64,000 nucleotides of DNA from Dryococelus australis (taxonomy: Eukaryota; Arthropoda; Insecta; Phasmatodea; Phasmatidae), in the NCBI GenBank assembly GCA_029891345.1, contig CM057009.1, positions 302,289,466 through 302,353,465 on the forward strand, in the 5' to 3' direction. Position numbers and translations under genes: made by a program. Positions within the stretch are counted from its first letter, which is position 1. Every line of letters begins with the position of its first letter. This document shows positions 22,494 through 62,504 of the stretch, in pieces. The notes beneath the pieces were generated by a model. It was not told the origin of the DNA and did not search any database. It was given only the letters and a program-made list of their open reading frames with translations.

Positions 22494-25387
22494 TGAAAAT
22501 CACTCAGGGGATGAATTGAGTAGCGATGAAGAAGATAGAGACACTGAAATGAGTGAAGAGATTTGGGCAGCTCTTAACAGCGAGGTCTTGAGAGCCGATG
22601 AGGGTGGCTGAAGTGAATATGGAGCAGTGCCGATGAAGGGGCGGGGTAAATGGGAGATCCCCGAGAAAACCCACCGACCAACGGCATCGTCAGGCATGAT
22701 TTCTACTTGCAAAAGTGTGGTGATCCGGCCGGGGATTGAAACCGGTTCGCCTTGGTGGGAGGCGAGCCTGCTAATCGCTCAGCCACTGCGGCCCCTAGAG
22801 GTAATGAAGATTGTGTTCAGGAGAAAAGCAATTCAGATGAAGACAGTGATAATGCTTTTTTTCAAGTACCTAGTAATGTGCAAAAACGACGGAAATGTAG
22901 TAGTGATAGTACCAAACATCGGAAGGCGGCCTCCATTGAAACACAACGTCGTGAAGCAGGTAAATAAATCAGTTTCAGCTAATATTTTTACAGCATTGTA
23001 AAACAAAGATGTGGTTAGCTATCTTACTAATAACAGCAATATCTTAGGTTGTTTCTCTGGCATGTTGATGTATTTTTTGAAATCATAATATGAAAGGTGT
23101 GTCAAACATTACAAGTGAAGACTTTCCCACGTTTCCTTATTGTATTTTCATTACAGAATTATGTACTACACTAACCCTAAAAAACCTCATTATTCATTTT
23201 ACTTTTCATGGCATGGCATGGCTGATAGTGTTATTCACTGACGCATTTCCTAATTAAGAGTTACTCATCATTCATGTAAGTGTATCATGTATCTGAAGGA
23301 AGATACTTATCTGAGTATATTTTTGAAAGATCCATCACTTTATATGTAGTGAAAAATTAATTTTGTACAGGAATAAAGACCTATATTTATGTTATAATTA
23401 CTTCCTAGAGATTCTCTTGCTGAATGAAGTTAATTTTATTCTTTATTTGATAGTAAAAGGCATATTGCATTTCTGCTAATATTTTGGGATATGATATGAT
23501 CGTAATGCAAAATTAAACTTCTGTTATAGGAAAAGACGTCGGCACATACAGCTCACTTACAACTTCCACTAGTTCTGGTAGTACTGTTGGAAACTTGGGG
23601 GTGGAAACAGATGGGACTCCATGGCATAAAATACAGCCTTCTAAAACATCTGCAGGTAAATAAAATCATAGAAAAGTGAAGCAAACATTTTTTCTAATTA
23701 TTTTTCAATTATGAAATGTAATTATTTTGTAAAATGTTACTTTCAGGTAGACTCACTTAACAAAATGTTTTTCGTGAGGCGAGTGGTGCTACAGGTCACG
23801 CCAAGAGAAACATCACAGTTGGTAACATGTCAAGTGCTTGGCGTTTGATGGTAAGTGAAGGTATGCTACGTCACACCAAGCATTGTACTGAAACTTAGGC
23901 TCACAGAATACTAAGTAGTACATACTGGGAAATTACGTTGAACGAGCTCGATGCATGTACAGAAATTTTGTATGATCGGGGTGTGTATGGAGCAAAGAAT
24001 CGTCCAGTTGTCAGCTTATGGTTCTATACATGGTGACCAACATTTTTAGCCCATACGATGAGTCAGGATATATTAATTGAAATAATGAAATATATTTGAT
24101 TTGATGTCAAAGAGAAATGCTCTGAGCGCCTGACAACGGATAAATTTGCACTCGCATCTGAACTGTAAGAAAACTTAATAGAGAACTGTATTATTTGCTA
24201 TAAACCAGCGAAAAATGTGACCAACGATGAAACGCTCTTCCCCAGTAAAGCCAGTTGCCCTTTCACACATTACATGGCAAACGAACCAGACAAATTCGGC
24301 ATAAAGTTATGGCTTGCAGTTGATGTCGTTTTACATCTTATGGACACATTTCTAAACAAGGGACGAAATGTAACAACATATAGTTTTTTTAATATCTATA
24401 AAGCTTGCCGAGAAGCTCAAAGAGAAGACAACAAGTCTTGTAGGGACAATGCATCGATCCAGAAGAGAAGTGCCAAAGTCAGTAAAGTGTGTTCGTGAAG
24501 CTCTTCACCACACAACAGTATTAAACAACAATGATATAACACTTGCCGTCTACCAAGGTAAGGACAACAAAAATATAATTGTCTTGAGCACACTTCATAC
24601 ATGTGTAGAAATTGCAGACAATGAGAAGAAAACTCCCGAAAGTGTTTCGTATCATAACAACTTTAAGTATGGTGTGGATATATTGGATCAACTGCCACGA
24701 CAGTACTCTGTGAAATCTGGATCTCGGCGGTGGCTACTTCATGTGTTCTTCAATATTTTGGACCTAGTGGCAATAAATGCATGGATATGGTATAAGCAAA
24801 TGACTGGAAGTTGTGATAGCAGGCGAATCTTCATTCTCAAGCTATGTGAAGAAATTCGAGAAGAGCATATAAAGTCATGGAAAACTGTTACTCACATTGT
24901 ACCACAAAGAGCTAATGAGCCTGAGTCCAGTTCTGTGACAAAACACCATAAATGCCAAACAGACAAATACAGTGGAAACAAAAGAGCATCTACTTGTTTT
25001 CAATGTTACAGAGCTACATGCGGAAAGTGTACAAGAAAACAGCAAGTCACTTGAGTTGACTGTTTTCAAGGTAGGGATTAGTTGGCGTGAAGCTATTTCT
25101 GTGAGATATAGTTATAACTCGACAAATATCTTGATATAAAAAATAAATTCTGTTTTTTGAAAATTTTTTGAAAATTTCACAAGGAAAGTACCTAGTTATT
25201 GCATAATATAAGAGTTTTGAGAAGACAAGGAAAGTTATCTTGTTTTGCTGTATATTACTTAATATCATAAATCTATTAATTTTGTTTTGAAATATTATTT
25301 TTTATCTTTTTGTTTGTAATTGTTCTAATTATATGTGAATTATAGAATTATGTTACAAAAATTGATTAAAAATAATTATAGGGTTAA
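22494..25387 (+). pseudogene. piggyBac-like transposase relic with intron-like gaps
   Basis: The relic starts with an acidic N-terminal stretch (about 22,494-22,605), is interrupted by a SINE, and resumes to 22,959. Two gaps bounded by GT and AG follow (22,960-23,529 and 23,656-23,746). Core DDE sequence then runs from 23,747 to 24,498, with about five stops in an otherwise continuous frame. It includes TGHAKRNITVGN, a WEIT block, FPSKASCPFT and KLWLAVDV (first catalytic Asp). The segment after LAVDV is deleted by roughly 30 codons, and the expected second Asp position reads TTYSFF. After a frameshift, 24,449-25,054 is open: KYGVDILDQ (third catalytic Asp), SRRWLLHVF, and a Cys-rich tail CFQC-x5-CGKC. 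GGG-TTAA at 25,381-25,387 is a plausible 3' end. It is dead. Confidence 0.88.
22630..22797 (-). mobile_element. tRNA-derived SINE fragment inside the piggyBac relic
   Basis: On the minus strand the head (from about 22,797) reads GGGGCCGCAGTGGCTGAGCG, an A-box-like start, and then GGTTTCAATCCCCGG, a B-box-like arm. Beyond it lies the body phrase CCGAGAAAACCC (plus-strand sense), shared with the element at 62.2 kb. It separates two acidic coding pieces of the piggyBac N-terminus, so it inserted later. It is not a functional tRNA because no cloverleaf closes. Confidence 0.7.
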
Positions 25388-35699: not shown

Positions 35700-36050
35700 C
35701 GCATGTGCAAAAAAACTAACAATAGTCCATTCACTGTTTCACTCCAACTTTCTGAATCCCTGCTAATGTTCTTGTTCTATTTCCGGCATATTCCTTTGCC
35801 TCATGCAAACAAAGCTTAGAAAATTGCACCAGAAGGCCAACATGCCAAATACGTGCATGGTCAGTGTAATTATATTTTGTGTAATTTATATTTATTACTA
35901 GGCATTACCAACAAATCTACTTTCTCTCTGCCTTTTTCATGTTAGTCATAAATGAAATGTTTTAATTTGTAGATACAATATAAATAAAAGTTTAATTTAA
36001 CCTATTATAAGGTTATTTAATATTTTGATATATTGTATAAACCGATTGTG
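35700..36050. other. No gene recognised; AT-rich
   Basis: This lies between the end of gypsy relic 2 and the foldback element. No motif was seen. Confidence 0.4.
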
Positions 36051-36245
36051 ATGTATTACATATTTAGGAAGAAATTAAATATGTCATGATTGAGGTGTTT
36101 TTTCAAAGGTTTGATATATAAATGAAGAAATCGCGAATAGACTATATAGTCAATTCGCAGTATCTTCGCACTGAACAAGATCTTTGAAAAATCACCTCAT
36201 ATATGTAATGTTTAATTATATCCTTAATATGTTGTGTATTTTTAA
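36051..36245. mobile_element. Foldback element, long imperfect hairpin
   Basis: A near-perfect 26-bp palindrome at 36,133-36,158 (arms GCGAAT and GACTATATAGTC) sits at the centre. Flanking arms of about 80 nt pair imperfectly: AGGAAGAAATTAAA, TGAGGTG and TTTTTCAAAG on the left match the inverse of phrases on the right in the same order. The whole can fold as one hairpin of about 195 nt. It is probably a foldback MITE; a precursor of small RNA is an alternative that needs expression data. Confidence 0.7.
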
Positions 36246-36799
36246 CAAACTTTTTATTCCTATGTTAACATAAAAAATATATTTTTTTGTTTCAATTGAA
36301 TTTTTACTTATAACATATGTGTAAATTAAAATATTTTACTCATAGCTAATATGATTAAAAATAGAGAGAAAATAGCTATGTTAGTAATGCATAGTAAGGA
36401 ATAGTTCTCATACAAAATATTATTAAACTGAGTGTGCATGAATGCGGCTCATGGTTCCTATGGTCTAATTTTGTAGACATAGTTAAGTTTTGTTTGTATC
36501 AGGCGAAGGAATATCCTGAAAGTTGAACTTAGAAGGGGCTTCAGAAAAGCTTGAAGTAGTCATGAATCGACTACAGAAAATTTACAAAGATTCCATGGAT
36601 TAATGAAAAGTCCATAATTTGATAATAAATGCATCCATATATTTACAGATAGTTTGGAGATCTTTTTATTAGCATCTTTCCATAAAACGACAGAACAATT
36701 TTTAAACAGTGAAATTACATGTAAATTCATATAGAGGACTCTAGAGGGTCTAGACAAATATATTTGTTTATCGACAGTGAGTTGCAAACTTTCCTACTG

Positions 36800-37482
36800 G
36801 AGTCAGAATGCCTTACCGACATGAAAGGGCGCCTTCTAAGTAGGTTCCGGACTTTGAACGGGACCGAATAAAATGCTTCCGTAAAGGAAGATTTTCGTAC
36901 TGCGAAATTGCAAATCATAAGGGTCACAATGCCTCGACGTTGATGCGAGTGTGGAAGCTGTTGACTGAAGAGAACAGGGTGAGTTAAACTTCCGGAACCG
37001 GCAGTCGAAATATGATTACAGCATGGAATGACAAACACATTATCCGCATGGCAGTGACGGATCATTCACCTTCGTCTCAAGTATTATCAGAATTTTGGAA
37101 CACTGCAACATGTCTGACATGGTCTACTTACAAGGTTTAATGGTGTCTGTTTCGTAGAGAACTGTGTGCATCCATTCTTGAGTGGATGGTTCCCTCGAGC
37201 TTGATCTATAGATGTCTCAGGCTACAATCGGCTCACGAAAATACCCACTGGCATACAGCGTGGTAACATGTGTTTAAGGATGAGTGCTGCCTGAACTTGG
37301 ATTACAAAGTTGGCCACAAACACATTTGACAAAATCAAGGTTAGTGCCATCTTGCAAAATGTATTGTCCAACATCATACTGTACGAACAGTGGGTATGAT
37401 TGTTAGGGATCAATTACGTGACATAGGCGATCTCGGTTGCTACTAATTGTCGACACTCTCAACAACAACCGCTACACCAAAT
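36800..37482 (+). pseudogene. Tc1/mariner transposase relic
   Basis: The translation gives a helix-turn-helix region with DFERDRIKCF, GRFSYCEIANHKG and TLMRVWKLL. It continues with NDKHIIRMAVTDHSPSSQVLS, RRELCASI and RLQSAHENTHWH, followed by a DECC block with the first catalytic Asp. The last parts are TVGMIVRDQL and LLIVDTLNNNRYT. At least five stops interrupt it. The coding match stops exactly at a palindrome (37,460-37,511). It is a Tc1-like cut-and-paste element, dead, lying next to the 3' end of the parvovirus-like insert. Confidence 0.85.
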
Positions 37483-37511
37483 TGTGAAATTTGGTGTAGC
37501 AGTTGTTGTTG
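37460..37511. repeat. 52-bp palindrome
   Basis: Arms of 24-25 nt (CAACAACAACCGCTACACC and its inverse) pair with one mismatch around a 3-nt loop GTG. It marks the point where the Tc1/mariner reading frame ends and lies about 250 bp beyond the capsid stop of the viral insert. It could be a rearrangement scar of the mariner or a terminus of the insert. Confidence 0.85.
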
Positions 37512-37757
37512 CCATCAGGGCAGTCATGGGATGATAGACTAGGCGTAGGTCGTCTTTTGGATGACGTTATTGGGAGGGAAATGTAAGGATGTGAGGATCG
37601 GATGTATACATGTTGGGAGAAGTTGGGCATCGGATGTATACTATTCCACATCACCTTAGACATAAGTCTGGAGGTTGTATACAAGATGCATTATCTCAAA
37701 TATTTAAAGACCATGAGATTCCCCAGTAGGCATATTATGTGGTCTTAATACTGACAT

Positions 37758-38820
37758 TTAAATGATATTTTTCATATTGTGTCCAGGATAGAACATTTTA
37801 CACTCACGATCTTTGGTCATCTGTCCTTGTGGGAGAACACAATAGTCACGGCCCTGTAATTCACGTTTACTGAAAGGTTCAGTAACTAATGTGTAATCCA
37901 TAAGAGTTTGTACACGTAGTCGGAATCTGAACTTCATCGTTCCAGTTTCTGTGGGAATTTCAGGAGCGGAGAGAAAGATAGCTGGAAATGTGAAACTATT
38001 ACGAATAGCACCTTTGTTTAGCAAGTCCCATGTTTCACTGTAGTTTTGTTTGTCATTTATCATCCAAGTAGTACCACTCGCGCCTGGAATGCAACCTTGC
38101 CAGAATAATGAACGTTTCTTTTGGTTATCAGGAATGATGTGAGGCATGTTGTTAAATGGAATGTGAAATTCCTTAGTGTGACCAACAGCCAATTCCTCGT
38201 AAGTGAGAGGATCCTGTTTGTCATAGGCTGCCATTATGTCCATAGATGTACGTCTATATGGTGGACGGACTTCAAGTTCGCTAATAGTTAGTTCAACCGA
38301 AGTGCGGTCTGCTTTACCAATTATTAAATTTTGGGATGATTCAAAGTCCCATGTAGTGGTTGATGTAGAGCCCTGAGTTAGAAGCCTTTGACGTGTTGTA
38401 GCTTGGTTGTGGATAGAAAACTTTAGAGAATGTATTTGAAGTAATGTACTCATGTTCATTAAATCAGCAAATGTTTTTGTATAGTTGTGTAGTTCATCTG
38501 TTGGTTTTAATCCGAATGTACCGGTCCAGAAGCCAAGGGATCTGTATGGTATGATAATAACACGTGGATCCTGACTGAAATCTGCGTCCCACCAGTAAGA
38601 GAGGTAATGAACCATGGATTACTTGTTGGGCTCTTGAGAAATAATTTGAAGGGATTGTTTCATGCATGTTGTACCCATAGCCGTCTTGACTTTGTTGAGC
38701 TGTTTGTCCAGCGCTAGCAGATGCTCCTTCTGTTTGACTGTCAATGTTCTTGTCTTGAGTAGGCGTTGGATTTGTTGCGATAACAGAAGGCCGACCAGAT
38801 GCATGTTTCGGTTTCGGCAT
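37758..38820 (-). pseudogene. Parvovirus-like capsid protein, frame broken once
   Basis: The start is chosen at the ATG at 38818-38820, just after the NS1 stop at 38834-38836. The first part is hydrophilic and rich in Ser, Ala, Gln and Thr, like a disordered capsid N-terminus. The frame shifts by one nucleotide somewhere near 38,610-38,660. The second part is a continuous 285-codon open frame (37,758-38,615) with a jelly-roll-like alternation of polar and hydrophobic residues. It contains FWTGTFGLKP, PYRRTSMDIM and FWQGCIPGAS. Combined length is about 350 codons, near the small capsid proteins of shrimp and mosquito hamaparvoviruses. In a virus it would form the T=1 shell. No phospholipase A2 motif is visible, as expected for this subfamily. 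The assignment rests mainly on position and size. Confidence 0.7.
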
Positions 38821-38833
38821 TCTGGAACACACA

Positions 38834-40810
38834 TTAGTCCGTCATGTCGTTAATGTCAACTCTGTGTAAAGTCATTTGTCTAGTAACTAAGTCACTGTAA
38901 GATAAAAGTCTGTCAAGTGTGTCTGAATGTAAGGGAATGTACTTGTCGGAAATTTGGTTTTCTGGAATGGCTTCAATTATGTCAGCGATGGCATGAAAGT
39001 GTAAGAGCATGTGGTTGTGGAGGTCAGTAGTTGTCAAGTTGTGAGGTGGTTGTTTGATGGTTCCTCTTGTGGTGAGATGCTCGATGGTGTTGGATAGGAT
39101 GTGTTTCTTTATCCTTATAGAAAGTGGAGCTTTCTCACCAGTTTCGCACCACGCCCACAGTTCCTGATTAGTTGTGATGAAAATGGGTATGCGTTCTATG
39201 ATCTCTTTGTCTTGGTGTTTCATGTCAGTGTTCGTCTTCGTACCTTCAAGTAACAGTTTCCAGTTTCCAACCGACGTGTTGTCGATACAAGGTTCTTCGA
39301 AGAGAACACTTGTAGCGTTCGGCAACTGGTCGAGATGGAAACCGGATCTGTCGTGTTCTCTGCTTATTTGTGTGGGATTTAGTGGCTCAGTCAGAAGTCG
39401 CACAATCATACTTTTGCCCGTGTTTGTAGGTCCTAGGATAACTAGTCCGTTGACCTTCTTGAGCATCATTGTTTGTATGATTATGAAGTCGCTGTAAAAT
39501 GTGGGGATGTCAATATTATTTTTCGTGAAGAATGTGTGGAGCCATTCAATGTTTTCTATTTGGTGTGCCGAAAGAGGTTCGTGTTTTATGTGTTCACAAT
39601 AATTAGTGTTTTTAATTGCAATGTTCTTTTCAGTGTTGCGGTACTTGATGATTTGACGTGTATATGAAGGAAGTGAAGTACCGCAGATTTTGAGAAACTG
39701 TATTTTTTCCTCGTATGAGATTTTGCTAATGAACTTCTCATACGATTCACAGTCGTATTTGTTTACTGCTGCATTTAGTGTGTCTACAATGTTGTTTCTA
39801 TAATTTTGATAATTGTCTGTATATTCATTGTTTGCCCGTTTTTTTGCTTCCACATATGGTTCACAGATTGTTTCTATGGGTGCGTCTGTTTCGTCAATGT
39901 TGTTGAGCATGGCTAAGAGTGATTTCATCGGTCCAGAACAAATTCCAAACTTGAGGAGCGTTGCGATACCTTCGCGAATGCAATATGCAATGAATCGCGC
40001 AAGGTTGCGGACTCGTTGTATACTGCTATTTGCTTCTGTAGTTCTCGCATCGCTGAGATTAAGGGCCTTGACAATTCTTGTAAGTGTTCTGGATTGATTG
40101 TTGAACTTTGCTGGGAAGATGATGTGGACGTGGTCGGTGTGTTTGAAGATGATAAAGGAGGGTTGTTTTCTTGTGGAGGTGTTGTTTGATTTGATGGACT
40201 GCCATTCACTGTTGTTGCAGTGGACGACGAAGGTGTAGTAGTCGTGTGTGTGTCCGTCTGCTGTTCTGTCTCCGTTTCCATCGCTTGTGCTGGGTTGTGG
40301 CCCATTATCGTGTGTGTCCAGTTCGCCGTCATCGGTAAGGTCCACTGTGGGGCTACGTCTTGTTGGCGACGTATTTCTATGGGTATTTTGTTGATCGGGG
40401 AAAGCGAAGCCAGGACTATCAAATTCTTGTCCATCGTTCCCACTTGTGTCCATGGTTCTTGAGCGTTTAATTGCTGAATGTATAGTGTTGTCGGCATCCA
40501 TGCGCTCAAGTGATCTAGTGTTGTCCTTAGAATTGTTTCCCTCACTTCTCGGTTGCTTACGTTTGTTAGATTCAGAAAGCATTCGTTTAAAGAGCCTTCT
40601 TTTTGAAGGATTTGAAGGTGAGATGGTATGTGGTTTAGAGGCTCCCTTTCCGTGAATTGGTGGAGTGGTGTTATTTGTGATCCTAGGCTCTGGAGTTGTT
40701 GGTTTGCTAGTACCCGCCTTATCGGTTGTGTCTGGAGGCGCAGTATGTATCTGCGCGGTGGTACTCTGAATCTGATGCCCCTCGTGTTCTCCAGATAGGC
40801 TACTTCCCAA
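38834..40810 (-). CDS. NS1: Parvovirus-like NS1 (HUH endonuclease and SF3 helicase)
   Basis: This is an uninterrupted 658-codon frame. Residues 1-190 are low-complexity and rich in Ser, Thr, Asn and Pro with basic clusters (SKRRLFKRM). The HUH nickase follows, with HVH at about 227-229 and the candidate catalytic Tyr in RFIAYCIREG (about 276). The SF3 helicase has Walker A GPTNTGKS (460-467), Walker B LFEEP (about 503-507), a B' loop LLEGTKTNTDMKHQD (about 520-534) and motif C ITTNQ (about 545-549). All key residues look present. NS1 nicks and unwinds parvovirus DNA during rolling-hairpin replication in the nucleus. The open frame begins just after a TAG and its first codon is TTG; the first ATG is residue 77 (40,580-40,582), which would give 582 residues. 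Translation from that ATG, a non-AUG start, or splicing are all possible. The N-terminal 295 codons overlap NS2. Confidence 0.85.
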   Translation of the reverse strand: MGSSLSGEHEGHQIQSTTAQIHTAPPDTTDKAGTSKPTTPEPRITNNTTPPIHGKGASKPHTISPSNPSKRRLFKRMLSESNKRKQPRSEGNNSKDNTRSLERMDADNTIHSAIKRSRTMDTSGNDGQEFDSPGFAFPDQQNTHRNTSPTRRSPTVDLTDDGELDTHDNGPQPSTSDGNGDRTADGHTHDYYTFVVHCNNSEWQSIKSNNTSTRKQPSFIIFKHTDHVHIIFPAKFNNQSRTLTRIVKALNLSDARTTEANSSIQRVRNLARFIAYCIREGIATLLKFGICSGPMKSLLAMLNNIDETDAPIETICEPYVEAKKRANNEYTDNYQNYRNNIVDTLNAAVNKYDCESYEKFISKISYEEKIQFLKICGTSLPSYTRQIIKYRNTEKNIAIKNTNYCEHIKHEPLSAHQIENIEWLHTFFTKNNIDIPTFYSDFIIIQTMMLKKVNGLVILGPTNTGKSMIVRLLTEPLNPTQISREHDRSGFHLDQLPNATSVLFEEPCIDNTSVGNWKLLLEGTKTNTDMKHQDKEIIERIPIFITTNQELWAWCETGEKAPLSIRIKKHILSNTIEHLTTRGTIKQPPHNLTTTDLHNHMLLHFHAIADIIEAIPENQISDKYIPLHSDTLDRLLSYSDLVTRQMTLHRVDINDMTD

Positions 40811-41082
40811 TGTTTGCTACTTGTCCCTCCCACTCCATGGAATTTGAATCCTTGATCGATTGTTGTTTGTATTTGTGTGGAGTCTTGTGAGAGTTCCTTA
40901 CCTGGGGCCGTGACAATGATTTCGTCTACTTCACAGTAGTCTTCAGCAGCGAGGTCGTCCAAGTCTGGTGTTGAAAACTCTTGCGCAAAAGGACACTGCC
41001 CGCAAGAAGAACCGCAAATGATGCACTGGCAATAATACTCACAATGGCCGCACCGACCGTGTTGCAAGCAGTACGTGTACAT
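39925..41082 (-). CDS. NS2: Parvovirus-like NS2, Cys-rich N-terminus, overlapping NS1
   Basis: This is an uninterrupted 385-codon frame from an ATG at 41,080-41,082. It begins 272 nt upstream of the NS1 open frame and overlaps it by 886 nt in another frame. The first 30 residues contain eight Cys and two His (pattern C-x5-C-x2-C-x3-C-x-C-x2-C-x3-C-x2-C), which suggests metal binding. The middle (about 35-230) is mixed and may be folded, with an acidic DDLAAEDYCEVDE patch. Residues 250-330 are Thr/Ser/Gln/Pro-rich and probably disordered. In penstyl-type viruses an NS2 frame of similar size (about 360 residues) starts upstream of NS1 and overlaps it; its function there is poorly understood. 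A TATA box lies 29 nt upstream of the ATG. Confidence 0.75.
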   Translation of the reverse strand: MYTYCLQHGRCGHCEYYCQCIICGSSCGQCPFAQEFSTPDLDDLAAEDYCEVDEIIVTAPGKELSQDSTQIQTTIDQGFKFHGVGGTSSKHWEVAYLENTRGIRFRVPPRRYILRLQTQPIRRVLANQQLQSLGSQITPLHQFTEREPLNHIPSHLQILQKEGSLNECFLNLTNVSNREVRETILRTTLDHLSAWMPTTLYIQQLNAQEPWTQVGTMDKNLIVLASLSPINKIPIEIRRQQDVAPQWTLPMTANWTHTIMGHNPAQAMETETEQQTDTHTTTTPSSSTATTVNGSPSNQTTPPQENNPPLSSSNTPTTSTSSSQQSSTINPEHLQELSRPLISAMRELQKQIAVYNESATLRDSLHIAFAKVSQRSSSLEFVLDR

Positions 41083-41110
41083 AATGAATAAGCGTTATTG
41101 ATGCGCGGGA

Positions 41111-41120
41111 ATATATATAG
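41111..41120 (-). promoter_or_regulatory. TATA box upstream of the NS2-like frame
   Basis: CTATATATAT on the minus strand, followed by TCCCGCGCAT. It lies 29 nt from the NS2-like ATG, so transcription would start almost at the start codon, giving a very short leader. Parvovirus early promoters are TATA-containing, which fits, but use of this box is inferred. Confidence 0.6.
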
Positions 41121-41250
41121 TGGAGGGGTAATGATAGCGTATATGTAGAGGGGAATGATCTTTGCTCTGCGATAAGCGATAACCTTGTGTCAATGTCGTG
41201 CGCGCTAAGTAGTTGCGTAAGTTGTTTACGTAATGGTGAAGTATTGTGGC

Positions 41251-41292
41251 ACATGTCCTATCCGTACGTCCGGACGTAGGATGTTGTCATGT
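41251..41292. repeat. Hairpin 1 upstream of NS genes
   Basis: A perfect 14-bp palindrome TACGTCCGGACGTA is extended by ATCC/GGAT and ACATG/CATGT arms with a small bulge and an internal loop. It forms a hairpin of about 42 nt, 170 nt upstream of the NS2-like start. Confidence 0.8.
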
Positions 41293-41409
41293 GGGGGTAT
41301 ATGTCCTTTGAGGACTAGAGAATAGTCTATCATCCAATATACTAAAGAATTACTTTAAAAAGCCCTATATATACATCCTGATAGCTCCTCCGACCACGTG
41401 TTGGGTTTG

Positions 41410-41469
41410 CCAGCTCTAGTAGAGCTGGTCCAATAATATTGGACGCAAGCCAATAATATTGGACGCAAT
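41410..41469. repeat. Palindrome cluster: one 19-bp palindrome and two 20-bp tandem repeats
   Basis: CCAGCTCTAGTAGAGCTGG (41,410-41,428) is a perfect inverted repeat around one base. It is followed immediately by two tandem copies of CCAATAATATTGGACGCAA(G/T) at 41,430-41,449 and 41,450-41,469. Each copy contains a hairpin with arms CCAATA/TATTGG. Such compact nested palindromes are typical of parvovirus termini and of NS1 binding or nicking regions. That role here is inferred. Confidence 0.8.
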
Positions 41470-41639
41470 TCCTTCAGCACCCTCCTGGAGCCATATTCTA
41501 ACAAGGCAATGTCCGACCACATGTAGCGGGAAATATCCAGGTCTTCTTCGAAGCAAGGCAAAAACCGCTTCTTCTCTGGCCTGCACGTTCGTTCGATAAG
41601 TAACTTATATAACATGCCATTGTCATTTAGAAACTAGCC

Positions 41640-43590
41640 AATAATGCTCATTCAACAGACAATACCGATGACCAATGGACTCGGGTGGAAGCAGCCTTGC
41701 AGACGATTCCTCAGATATACATCCAAGGCCATTTGATTCCATGCCACAGAACATGTGCAGCTTATTGCAGCTGATGGAGGCTTTCAGCATACTGATATTT
41801 TGCAAGTCATTTTGTTGCATTTCCCTGCAAATGTGGAATTTTTGTTGCCCCAAAATAGCAATTTAAAGGCTAGCCTATGGTTGAATTAATTACTTTATTT
41901 CCTCAGCCTTCATGTACTGTGGGGGGAAGTTATCTGGGCGCGTCTTAGCGTGGTGAAACATAGAAGCGGGGTCGCCGGATAAAGGGGAAAAACGGGTTGT
42001 AAAGGGGAAAGGGGACACTCCACAAGACTATGGAGCACACACGCCCAGATACTTGCCGGCCACAGTATGTGTACGCATGTGTATACACATAGAGTGAGGG
42101 CACGGGTAGCAGAAAGGTGAGCAGGTTGTGCACACATGGAGGAAGGTGACTAAATGTGCGCTGTCCACAGATTTGACATATAGTATTTGTTCGAGAGTTT
42201 TCACATGTGTTCATGGTGGTGAGACGAACATTGGCAAACATGTGTGGAAGACTTAGCAATATCCAGCAATATGGAGCAACAATTTTAAATTCTAGCTTTG
42301 TTGCAGTCTCTCATTAATCTTAAGATTACACACTTTTAATAGCCCGACTGAGTTTTACTTTTCAATTAGTTATGCATCTTCAGTTGCAAGTAAAATTAAC
42401 CTTGTAGTGGATGTAATGATTGGCAACAAGACGACGATACACTGACTATGTGAAAATATTAGAAGCGTACATATGTTATTACTGACAGTTCTTATTCTTA
42501 TGCGTACTCAAGTAATTTTTAGTGACATACATAAGGACACAGAGAGAAACAGGAGAAGTGACAGAATGAAGAGGTATTGGAAAGAGCGAAGGCGCCCTGG
42601 ATAAATCACTCGTGATCCTGACGCGTCATAACGAACTAGAAGAAGAAAGACGCTGATCTACATTTCCTAATCAGCTTCTGTCATTATTGTAAGTTATCCA
42701 GTATAAGCAGTTAGTGGCGGGTATTTCTCAAAAATGTATTTCTAAATGACTCAACCATGAACCCGCCCACCTGTAGTGTTCTTATAGAGCACTTCACTCA
42801 GTCATAGAGAACTCCCACGTGTTTACCAGGAATGTGGACAATTTTTGTAAGTTAGTACAGGTAAGATCATTTTCATATAAATGGGGATGGAAATGCATAG
42901 GTATAAACCTTGTCTAAAGTATCTCCATCTTTCTTTCGAAAGAATGCACAGTAATTTTTAATGGAAATCATCCAGTGATGTAGAAAAGTGGTTGTCATTG
43001 CAGTTTAGTTTTTCTCCTGTATTGAGGACAATATTAAACAGTAAATAAATATGTTGACATGCCTGAATCAAATATAACTTATGCACCACACGTTTTAGTG
43101 TTAAAGAAATTACAAGGTAAAGGGAATATAATAGTTAATATTAGTAATATTTACATGTTTAAACTAGTTTTATTCACTTTGATTTTAGCCATGAGAGTCT
43201 GTTTAGTAAGATTACTAATGTTTAGTAGTAATTTTTTCTAGATAGCACGATCACTCAAGGTAATAAATATAAACTTTATGGCCAGCTCTAGTTGATTCAG
43301 ATATCGAATTGTATGAAAATAGGCTAAGACAGAAAAGTTAATAGCTGCATATTCCCATTCCTTGCTTGTTTGCTTCCCTACTGCTGCGAGAATATTAACC
43401 GAACGTTGAAAATATTCCAGCCTATAGAAGCATACAGTATAAAATAAGCACCCAGTACATATCTACATTAGTATGAAGAATAACTATATGGTTTAATGCC
43501 TTACTAAGACCACAGATTTCAAAATTGTTGACTAATAAAACTCGTATATTTTTATGAATACTACAAAAAGAATTGATGACATGTATTTGT
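41640..43590. other. No gene recognised
   Basis: Short frames only. A 63-codon plus frame at 41,675-41,866 and its antisense have no known motif. The sequence from 42.3 kb onward is AT-rich and featureless. Confidence 0.45.
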
Positions 43591-62214: not shown

Positions 62215-62504
62215 AATAAAATAACTCGAGTGGGGAGTGAACCCAGGGCGAAGCAACCCACTCCGAGTCACGGGTTTTCCAGTTGGGACCGGTAAGAGCC
62301 CGTCATCCCCGGACATGACATGAAATGAGATCCTAGGAAGGCGTGGCGCTGGAATGCGAGGACGGGGGAAACGGGAGTACCCCGAGAAAACCCGCCGGTA
62401 AGCGGCATCCTCCGGCACGAATCCCACATTCGAAAATCCGGGAGTGAACCCGGGTCGCTGAGGTGGGAGACGAGCGCCCTAGCCACTGTGCCGCCGCTGC
62501 CCCG
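62215..62504 (-). mobile_element. tRNA-derived SINE
   Basis: On the minus strand, from 62,504, GGGGCAGCGGCGGCACAGTG is followed by GGCTAGGGCGCTCG (A-box-like), and GGGTTCACTCCCGG (B-box) lies about 45 nt further on. Downstream body phrases, in plus sense GGGAGTACCCCGAGAAAACC and CGGCATCCTCCGGCA, match the SINE fragment in the piggyBac relic at 22.6-22.8 kb. No acceptor stem closes, so it is not a tRNA gene. Confidence 0.8.

What the first reader, a model, noticed from the sequence alone, without database searches (positions are those of the whole stretch)
37758..41469. Endogenous parvovirus-like element with two intact overlapping NS frames
The neighbouring transposons are riddled with stops, yet two viral frames of 658 and 385 codons remain open over 2.2 kb while overlapping each other. 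Frame order and sizes fit the Hamaparvovirinae (penstyl and brevi types). This implies a recent insertion, host use of the NS products, or an active virus mis-assembled into the contig.
Basis: partly seen in the sequence, partly recalled or inferred. Interest (0 to 1): 0.9.

Follow-up and report, generated by a model that had tools for sequence, protein, structure and literature searches.

The report
Young parvovirus fossil, probable stick insect
A stretch of DNA, probably from a stick insect, carries frame-broken replication and coat genes of a parvovirus related to mosquito densoviruses, likely pasted as a nearly whole viral genome into an old transposon; the two "intact" replication frames are two genes whose starts were likely exchanged by a frameshift, so it is most likely a young viral fossil.

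Summary
The frames exist, and the parvovirus call is right. On the minus strand, 38834-40810 (658 codons) is an NS1 body with nuclease and helicase motifs. 39925-41082 (385 codons) overlaps it, and 37758-38615 is capsid.

"Two intact NS frames" is not borne out. The first ~90 codons of the 385-codon frame are the cysteine-rich start of NS1, as in Dryococelus australis PR048_010873 and mosquito densovirus NS1; the rest is NS2 body. A frameshift near 40.8 kb has likely exchanged the heads. A second splits the capsid gene near 38.6 kb.

No premature stop was found in about 3.3 kb, which bounds neutral change at about 1.8% of sites. The insert, about 37.5-41.47 kb, is genome-sized and appears to interrupt a decayed Tc1-type transposase; the right flank was tested, the left is by eye.

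By identity the five nearest proteins are D. australis gene models on four scaffolds, so repeated endogenization is likely. A brevidensovirus-like stick-insect transcript was published in 2016 (PMC5013282). New member of a known kind. Open: host species, whether the frameshifts are assembly errors, expression.

The parts
37512..41469 (-). inserted parvoviral DNA (about 3.96 kb; left edge approximate, 37.49-37.51 kb)
   Evidence: homology to relatives' proteins 37761-41223; flanks and edge palindromes; that 37512-37757 is viral is inferred
38834..40810 (-). NS1 body: disordered N-terminal part, HUH nuclease motif, SF3 helicase; no ATG before 40582
   Evidence: Pfam Parvo_NS1 5.2e-11; best solved structures are papillomavirus E1 helicases, 2.8e-06; 83% to PR048_010873 over 89%; stop/ATG map; alignment
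40812..41082 (-). NS1 head (cysteine-rich), first ~90 codons of the 385-codon ORF
   Evidence: 75 of 89 aligned residues identical to PR048_010873, in which the NS1 body follows directly; 11 of 30 identical to the NS1 start of three densoviruses (P0016, P0017, P0018); no match to P0023
39928..40809 (-). NS2 body, rest of the 385-codon ORF, overlapping NS1 in another frame
   Evidence: 61 of 211 aligned columns identical to P0008, 4e-14; tblastn of P0008 and P0002 in this frame
38611..38820 (-). capsid (VP) head
   Evidence: matches P0013 and P0014 from the same Met
37758..38600 (-). capsid (VP) body, in another frame than its head
   Evidence: Pfam AdSDV_VP1 1.4e-26; AdSDV capsid structure 8erk 1.4e-12; 264 of 280 residues identical to PR048_010873
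41112..41117 (-). TATA-like box about 30 nt before the first ATG (41082)
   Evidence: pattern scan; consensus match only, a second match at 41366
37460..37511 (.). strongest palindrome found in 37.3-41.9 kb, at the left edge (24-nt arms, 4-nt loop)
   Evidence: left-end fold z -4.50
41410..41464 (.). paired palindromes at the right edge, able to fold into a Y/T shape
   Evidence: folding energy of the whole right end is not exceptional (z -0.98)
37529..37541 (.). 13 nt shared, inverted, with 41323-41335 (possible remnant of terminal sequence)
   Evidence: 0 of 500 shuffles reach it between the two non-coding ends; an earlier gapped test over longer flanks was negative
36844..37487 (+). left flank: probable front part of a decayed Tc1-type transposase (by eye)
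   Evidence: HTH_38 E 0.072, below cut-off; motif recalled; not significant against L001 in any of 3 frames
41469..41830 (+). right flank: end part of a decayed Tc1-type transposase
   Evidence: motif 41502-41527, 2 mismatches, 0 of 100 shuffles; one of 3 frames aligns with the Tc1-like locus L001 better than 500 of 500 shuffles, but L001 was itself fetched by that motif

Best explanation
This is parvoviral DNA of the brevi type (mosquito and cricket densoviruses), likely an endogenous copy that entered the germ line of a stick insect as an almost whole viral genome during repair of a break in an old Tc1-type transposon, and that most likely now decays there without making virus. Shown: NS1, NS2 and capsid coding and their order, two frame breaks in the sequence as given, no premature stop, and close relatives among D. 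australis gene models. Inferred: the host (from best hits), the route of entry (an inverted 24-nt copy at the left junction, no exact target duplication of 7-12 nt, about 20-24 nt of target apparently lost), and the lack of function. The frameshift near 40.8 kb gives NS1's cysteine-rich head to the NS2 body and leaves the NS1 body without its own start, which is why two long overlapping frames look 'intact'.
For: Families and structures. Head exchange: PR048_010873 runs from the head (frame -2, ends at 40810) into the body (frame -1, from 40807) with one residue between. Three densovirus NS1s (P0016-P0018) begin with the same cysteine motif in the NS1 frame. The NS2-like relatives P0002 and P0008 and P0019 start without it, and an ATG at 40838 lies in the third frame. 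VP break: single proteins P0013, P0014 and P0015 span it. Youth: 0 stops over 3296 sites gives an upper 95% bound of 60 random substitutions, 1.8% (26 nt around the VP break and before VP left out). The differences from PR048_010873 look laid down under constraint: NS1 codons 421-545 differ at 4.8% against 13.6% expected without selection, 0 of 1000 simulations as low. Insertion. Copies: five D. australis gene models on scaffolds of four lengths.
Against: The left flank as transposase rests on recalled motifs: Pfam found nothing above cut-off in the read-through or joined flanks, and the comparison with L001 was not significant for any of 3 left frames. L001 was chosen by the motif tested, so one search is not independent of it. 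A gapped test for terminal repeats over longer flanks was negative; only a short exact inverted match stands out. Of 200 shuffles of the P0016 head the best (70) exceeds the observed 68 (P0017 best 50, P0018 best 44), and the head of P0023 does not match at all (27). The PR048 proteins are gene models, so direct joins could be model artefacts; that of PR048_010873 also reads part of the VP head in another frame. Placement next to the mosquito viruses is not decisive. Host and assembly were not identified: the genome search did not complete.
Confidence: 0.8

Rival explanations
1. The two frameshifts are assembly errors and the integrated copy has all three genes open, that is, a very recent germline insertion. 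(This shares the insertion with the best explanation and differs only on the frame breaks.)
For: No premature stop, only two length changes. The D. australis assembly was built from error-prone long reads and its authors mention indel errors that polishing might correct (PMC10268593, passages). The PR048_010873 model passes both points.
Against: The window has not been shown to be from that assembly. Two small length changes in 3.3 kb are also what a young pseudogene would show.
Confidence: 0.35
2. Host use: the NS1 body and/or the head-NS2 fusion are kept by selection in the insect.
For: Catalytic motifs kept, long open frames, divergence from the closest copy under constraint.
Against: That constraint can date from the time as viruses. 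NS1 lacks its start. The capsid is as free of stops as NS, which host use of NS alone would not predict. VP of the D. australis models ranges from 58% to 94% identity to the window, as repeated integrations would give.
Confidence: 0.06
3. An exogenous virus genome was mis-joined into the contig.
For: Genome-like length and edge palindromes.
Against: Two frame breaks, related gene models inside four large D. australis scaffolds, and transposase sequence running out of the right edge.
Confidence: 0.04

Closest known systems
Dryococelus australis gene model PR048_010873 (unnamed parvoviral insertion)
   Same: NS1 83% over 89% of the query, helicase part 130 of 137, VP 264 of 280 residues; similarity reaches upstream to 41223
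   Different: NS1 head and body in one protein; model fuses NS1 and VP; different sequence, so another locus or another species
Brevihamaparvovirus (now listed as Brevipenbrevirus): Aedes albopictus densovirus, Mosquito densovirus HB-3
   Same: NS1 with cysteine-rich head
   Different: 36% and 33% NS1 identity; the window copy is frameshifted and likely integrated
Acheta domesticus segmented densovirus (AdSDV)
   Same: capsid (1.4e-12); NS1 796 aa and NS2 379 aa, near the sizes here (PMC10267136, passages)
   Different: AdSDV has its NS and VP genes on two segments; here NS and VP lie on one stretch. Its NS1 was not compared
Aretaon asperrimus transcript GAWC01079978 (PMC5013282, passages)
   Same: stick insect, 4.2 kb, NS1 and VP; the authors liken the arrangement of this and of a stink-bug sequence to brevi- and ambidensoviruses respectively
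   Different: transcript of unknown origin, not compared here at sequence level

Membership tests
Parvoviridae-derived sequence | NS1 with SF3 helicase | tested here: met
   Parvo_NS1 5.2e-11, above cut-off; GxTNxGKS columns largely invariant in 11 rows
Parvoviridae-derived sequence | HUH nuclease motif in NS1 | tested here: met
   H-x-H aligned with relatives (P0003 and P0007 of 11 rows lack that part); motif name recalled
Parvoviridae-derived sequence | hairpin termini | tested here: inconclusive
   palindromes at both edges and a shared inverted 13-mer, but no gapped terminal repeat and ordinary folding energy on the right
Brevihamaparvovirus / Brevipenbrevirus | NS1 cysteine-rich head, overlapping NS2, AdSDV-type VP | tested here: met
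   the head is no longer in the NS1 frame; NS2 was compared with unnamed metagenome proteins, not with a mosquito NS2
Brevihamaparvovirus / Brevipenbrevirus | NS1 tree position inside the genus | tested here: inconclusive
   next to mosquito densoviruses and P0018 at 91/90, not starred; grouping with the clade of the termite gene P0007 not rejected, p-AU 0.097; penstyl and AdSDV NS1 not in the tree
Brevihamaparvovirus / Brevipenbrevirus | infectious particle with ssDNA genome | not testable with these tools
   sequence only
Endogenous viral element | host DNA on both sides | tested here: inconclusive
   right side tested, left by eye; no reads
   none of the proteins listed is named as a penstyl NS1, so none was knowingly in the trees
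Intact endogenous NS genes | each NS gene with own start in one frame | tested here: not met

The most novel reading that the evidence does not exclude
Stick insects host a living, undescribed brevi-type parvovirus lineage that repeatedly enters the germ line, and this copy is young enough that its cysteine-head/NS2 fusion is expressed as a new protein or as an antiviral RNA source.
Probability: 0.12. Interest if true: 0.65.

Novelty: new member of a known kind. Interest (0 to 1): 0.36.

Why it matters
It adds a near genome-length fossil with an upper bound on its decay to a virus group whose listed species are dipteran and orthopteran by name, and points to repeated capture in stick insects, among them D. 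australis, which is critically endangered (abstract listing). It also shows how one frameshift in overlapping genes can make two broken genes look like two intact ones, a trap for scans that score open frames.

Tried and rejected
Rejected: host exaptation as the first explanation (see rivals). Rejected: programmed frameshifting or splicing as the normal link between head and body, because PR048_010873 and three densovirus NS1s have the head in the NS1 protein; a short intron in the PR048_010873 model is not excluded.

Led nowhere: three scans of IMG/VR for relatives of NS1 and VP found none. The Rfam and tRNA scans were empty. PHROGs gave only 0.035 for the 385 frame. Pfam, NCBIfam and PDB searches of the flanks gave nothing above a cut-off or only unrelated weak hits. 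Ten IMG/VR loci found by a transposase motif showed no useful match. The whole-window search for other matches to the fetched proteins outside the element found only a repeat shared with P0012. CpG depletion does not mark the element (0.82; 11 of 53 other stretches are as high or higher). No exact direct repeat of 7-12 nt was found at the two edges; shorter or inexact ones were not sought. The first neutral simulation used the whole NS1 body and was replaced, which uses codons 1-545 only. The second tree leaves out 10 of the 27 rows of the first. Structure prediction was not used.
Full report
WHAT IS THERE. The minus strand of 37758-41082 holds three long frames. 38834-40810 (658 codons) matches Pfam Parvo_NS1 (5.2e-11) and the papillomavirus helicase family (2.5e-09). 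37758-38615 (285 codons) matches the densovirus capsid family AdSDV_VP1 (1.4e-26) and the solved capsid of Acheta domesticus segmented densovirus (1.4e-12). 39925-41082 (385 codons) has no Pfam match above a cut-off (best E 0.12). Open frames this long are not chance: 200 shuffles of the element never exceed 207 codons.

THE RELATIVES. Searches of 5.8 billion proteins with NS1, with VP and with an NS1 alignment returned 12, 3 and 22 proteins; one search scored only the 7999 candidates that share most words. Five are gene models of the Lord Howe Island stick insect, Dryococelus australis: PR048_010873, 008670, 020234, 023832 and 027446, on scaffolds of four different lengths. By identity (52-91%, two of them over less than a fifth of the query) they are the nearest five. 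Others are a gene of the termite Cryptotermes secundus, Aedes albopictus densovirus, Mosquito densovirus HB-3, a record named Ambidensovirus sp., and unnamed metagenome proteins. Against PR048_010873, VP is identical at 264 of 280 residues, the helicase part at 130 of 137, the nuclease part at 112 of 130, but the disordered NS1 start only at 148 of 190. The host is therefore probably a stick insect, possibly D. australis itself; I could not confirm this.

THE NS FRAMES ARE NOT INTACT. PR048_010873 aligns to frame -2 up to 40810 and continues, one residue later, in frame -1 from 40807. The NS1s P0016 (Aedes albopictus densovirus), P0017 (Mosquito densovirus HB-3) and P0018 begin with the same cysteine-rich motif, in the NS1 frame. 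They score 68, 68 and 66 against the window head; the best of 200 shuffles is 70, 50 and 44. The fourth tested, P0023, does not match (27). The NS2-like protein P0008 matches the later part of the 385-codon frame (4e-14), as does P0002 more weakly (3e-4), and both start without that motif. An ATG in the third frame at 40838 is a plausible old NS2 start; this step is inferred. So a small length change near 40.8 kb has likely exchanged the heads. The 658-codon frame has no ATG until 40582. In AdSDV one mapped transcript can express an N-terminally truncated NS1 from the second ATG (PMC10267136, passages), so a shorter NS1 from this copy is conceivable; that is untested. The capsid gene starts at 38820 in frame -2 and continues in frame -3 from about 38.6 kb, whereas single proteins of three relatives span that point.

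AGE AND CONSTRAINT. Over 3296 coding sites no premature stop is present (26 nt around the VP break and between NS1 and VP were left out). About 5% of random substitutions would make one, so at most about 60 substitutions (1.8%) have accumulated without selection, at 95%. The differences between window and PR048_010873 are spread as under purifying selection. NS1 codons 421-545 differ at 4.8% against 13.6% expected (0 of 1000 simulations as low) and codons 321-420 at 7.0% against 14.1% (14 of 1000 as low). Codons 191-320 are as expected (13.8% against 13.6%), and codons 1-190 are above (22.1% against 13.4%, 0 of 1000 as high). Conservative changes are in excess in NS1 (14 of 1000 simulations as high) and VP (24 of 1000); the two halves of VP do not differ. 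This constraint may lie wholly in the time as viruses.

THE INSERTION SITE. To the right of 41469 the plus strand reads as the end of a Tc1-type transposase. A degenerate pattern for its conserved motif (typed from recall) hits 41502-41527 with 2 mismatches and none in 100 shuffles. One of three frames of 41470-41830 aligns to a Tc1-like element in locus L001 better than all 500 shuffles, the other two do not; L001 had been fetched by that motif, so the two tests overlap. To the left, 36844-37487 reads by eye as the front of such a transposase in the same direction. This is recalled; the tests were weak or negative. Counting from the positions, about 20-24 nt of transposase are missing at the join compared with L001. 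At the left edge a 24-nt stretch is followed by its own inverted copy (37460-37511, 96%), the strongest palindrome found in 37.3-41.9 kb. The next strongest, at 41428-41464, lies at the right edge. A 13-nt sequence is shared, inverted, by the two non-coding ends (0 of 500 shuffles), though a gapped test over longer flanks was negative. No exact target duplication of 7-12 nt was seen. The picture fits capture of an almost whole, hairpin-ended genome during break repair; this is inference.

CLASSIFICATION. In a 17-row NS1 tree the window and PR048_010873 pair at 100/100 and stand next to the mosquito densoviruses and P0018 at 91/90, which is not decisive; a grouping with the clade that holds the termite gene P0007 is not rejected (p-AU 0.097). 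The 27-row tree gives a four-row D. australis/window clade at 98/96, two of whose rows are partial and long-branched, and its deeper placement is open (81/59). The genus, formerly Brevihamaparvovirus, is now listed as Brevipenbrevirus with species named dipteran and orthopteran.

NOVELTY. [quoted passage not shown] Searches for endogenous with parvovir and stick insect, and for endogenous parvovir with Phasmatodea, found only that paper, and Dryococelus with parvovir found none, in open-licence PMC papers only; other searches were seen as listings, in part. In the D. australis genome paper the word virus does not occur in the main text and viral occurs once, in a passage I did not see; it speaks of indel errors in its assembly (PMC10268593, passages).

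Noticed in passing
window 22563-22787 and 62347-62498: Two stretches that match a part of the D. australis gene model PR048_008670, a model that begins with an NS1 fragment; probably an interspersed repeat.
   Followed up: no
P0002, P0008 (JGI metagenome proteins): In these relatives the NS2-like part and the NS1 nuclease/helicase are in one protein, unlike the mosquito densovirus NS1s seen here; a real gene fusion or another frameshifted fossil.
   Followed up: partly
P0013 (PR048_020234): D. australis gene model that repeats parts of the capsid, as if tandem or rearranged viral copies lie at that locus.
   Followed up: no
L001 5400-7400: A Tc1-like transposon in a contig binned as a bacterial symbiont of a deep-sea mussel; probably host DNA in the bin.
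   Followed up: partly
window 35774-36528: Large imperfect palindrome just left of the element: 36058-36528 matches 35774-36232 in inverted orientation, 68% over 477 columns; possibly a foldback transposon.
   Followed up: no
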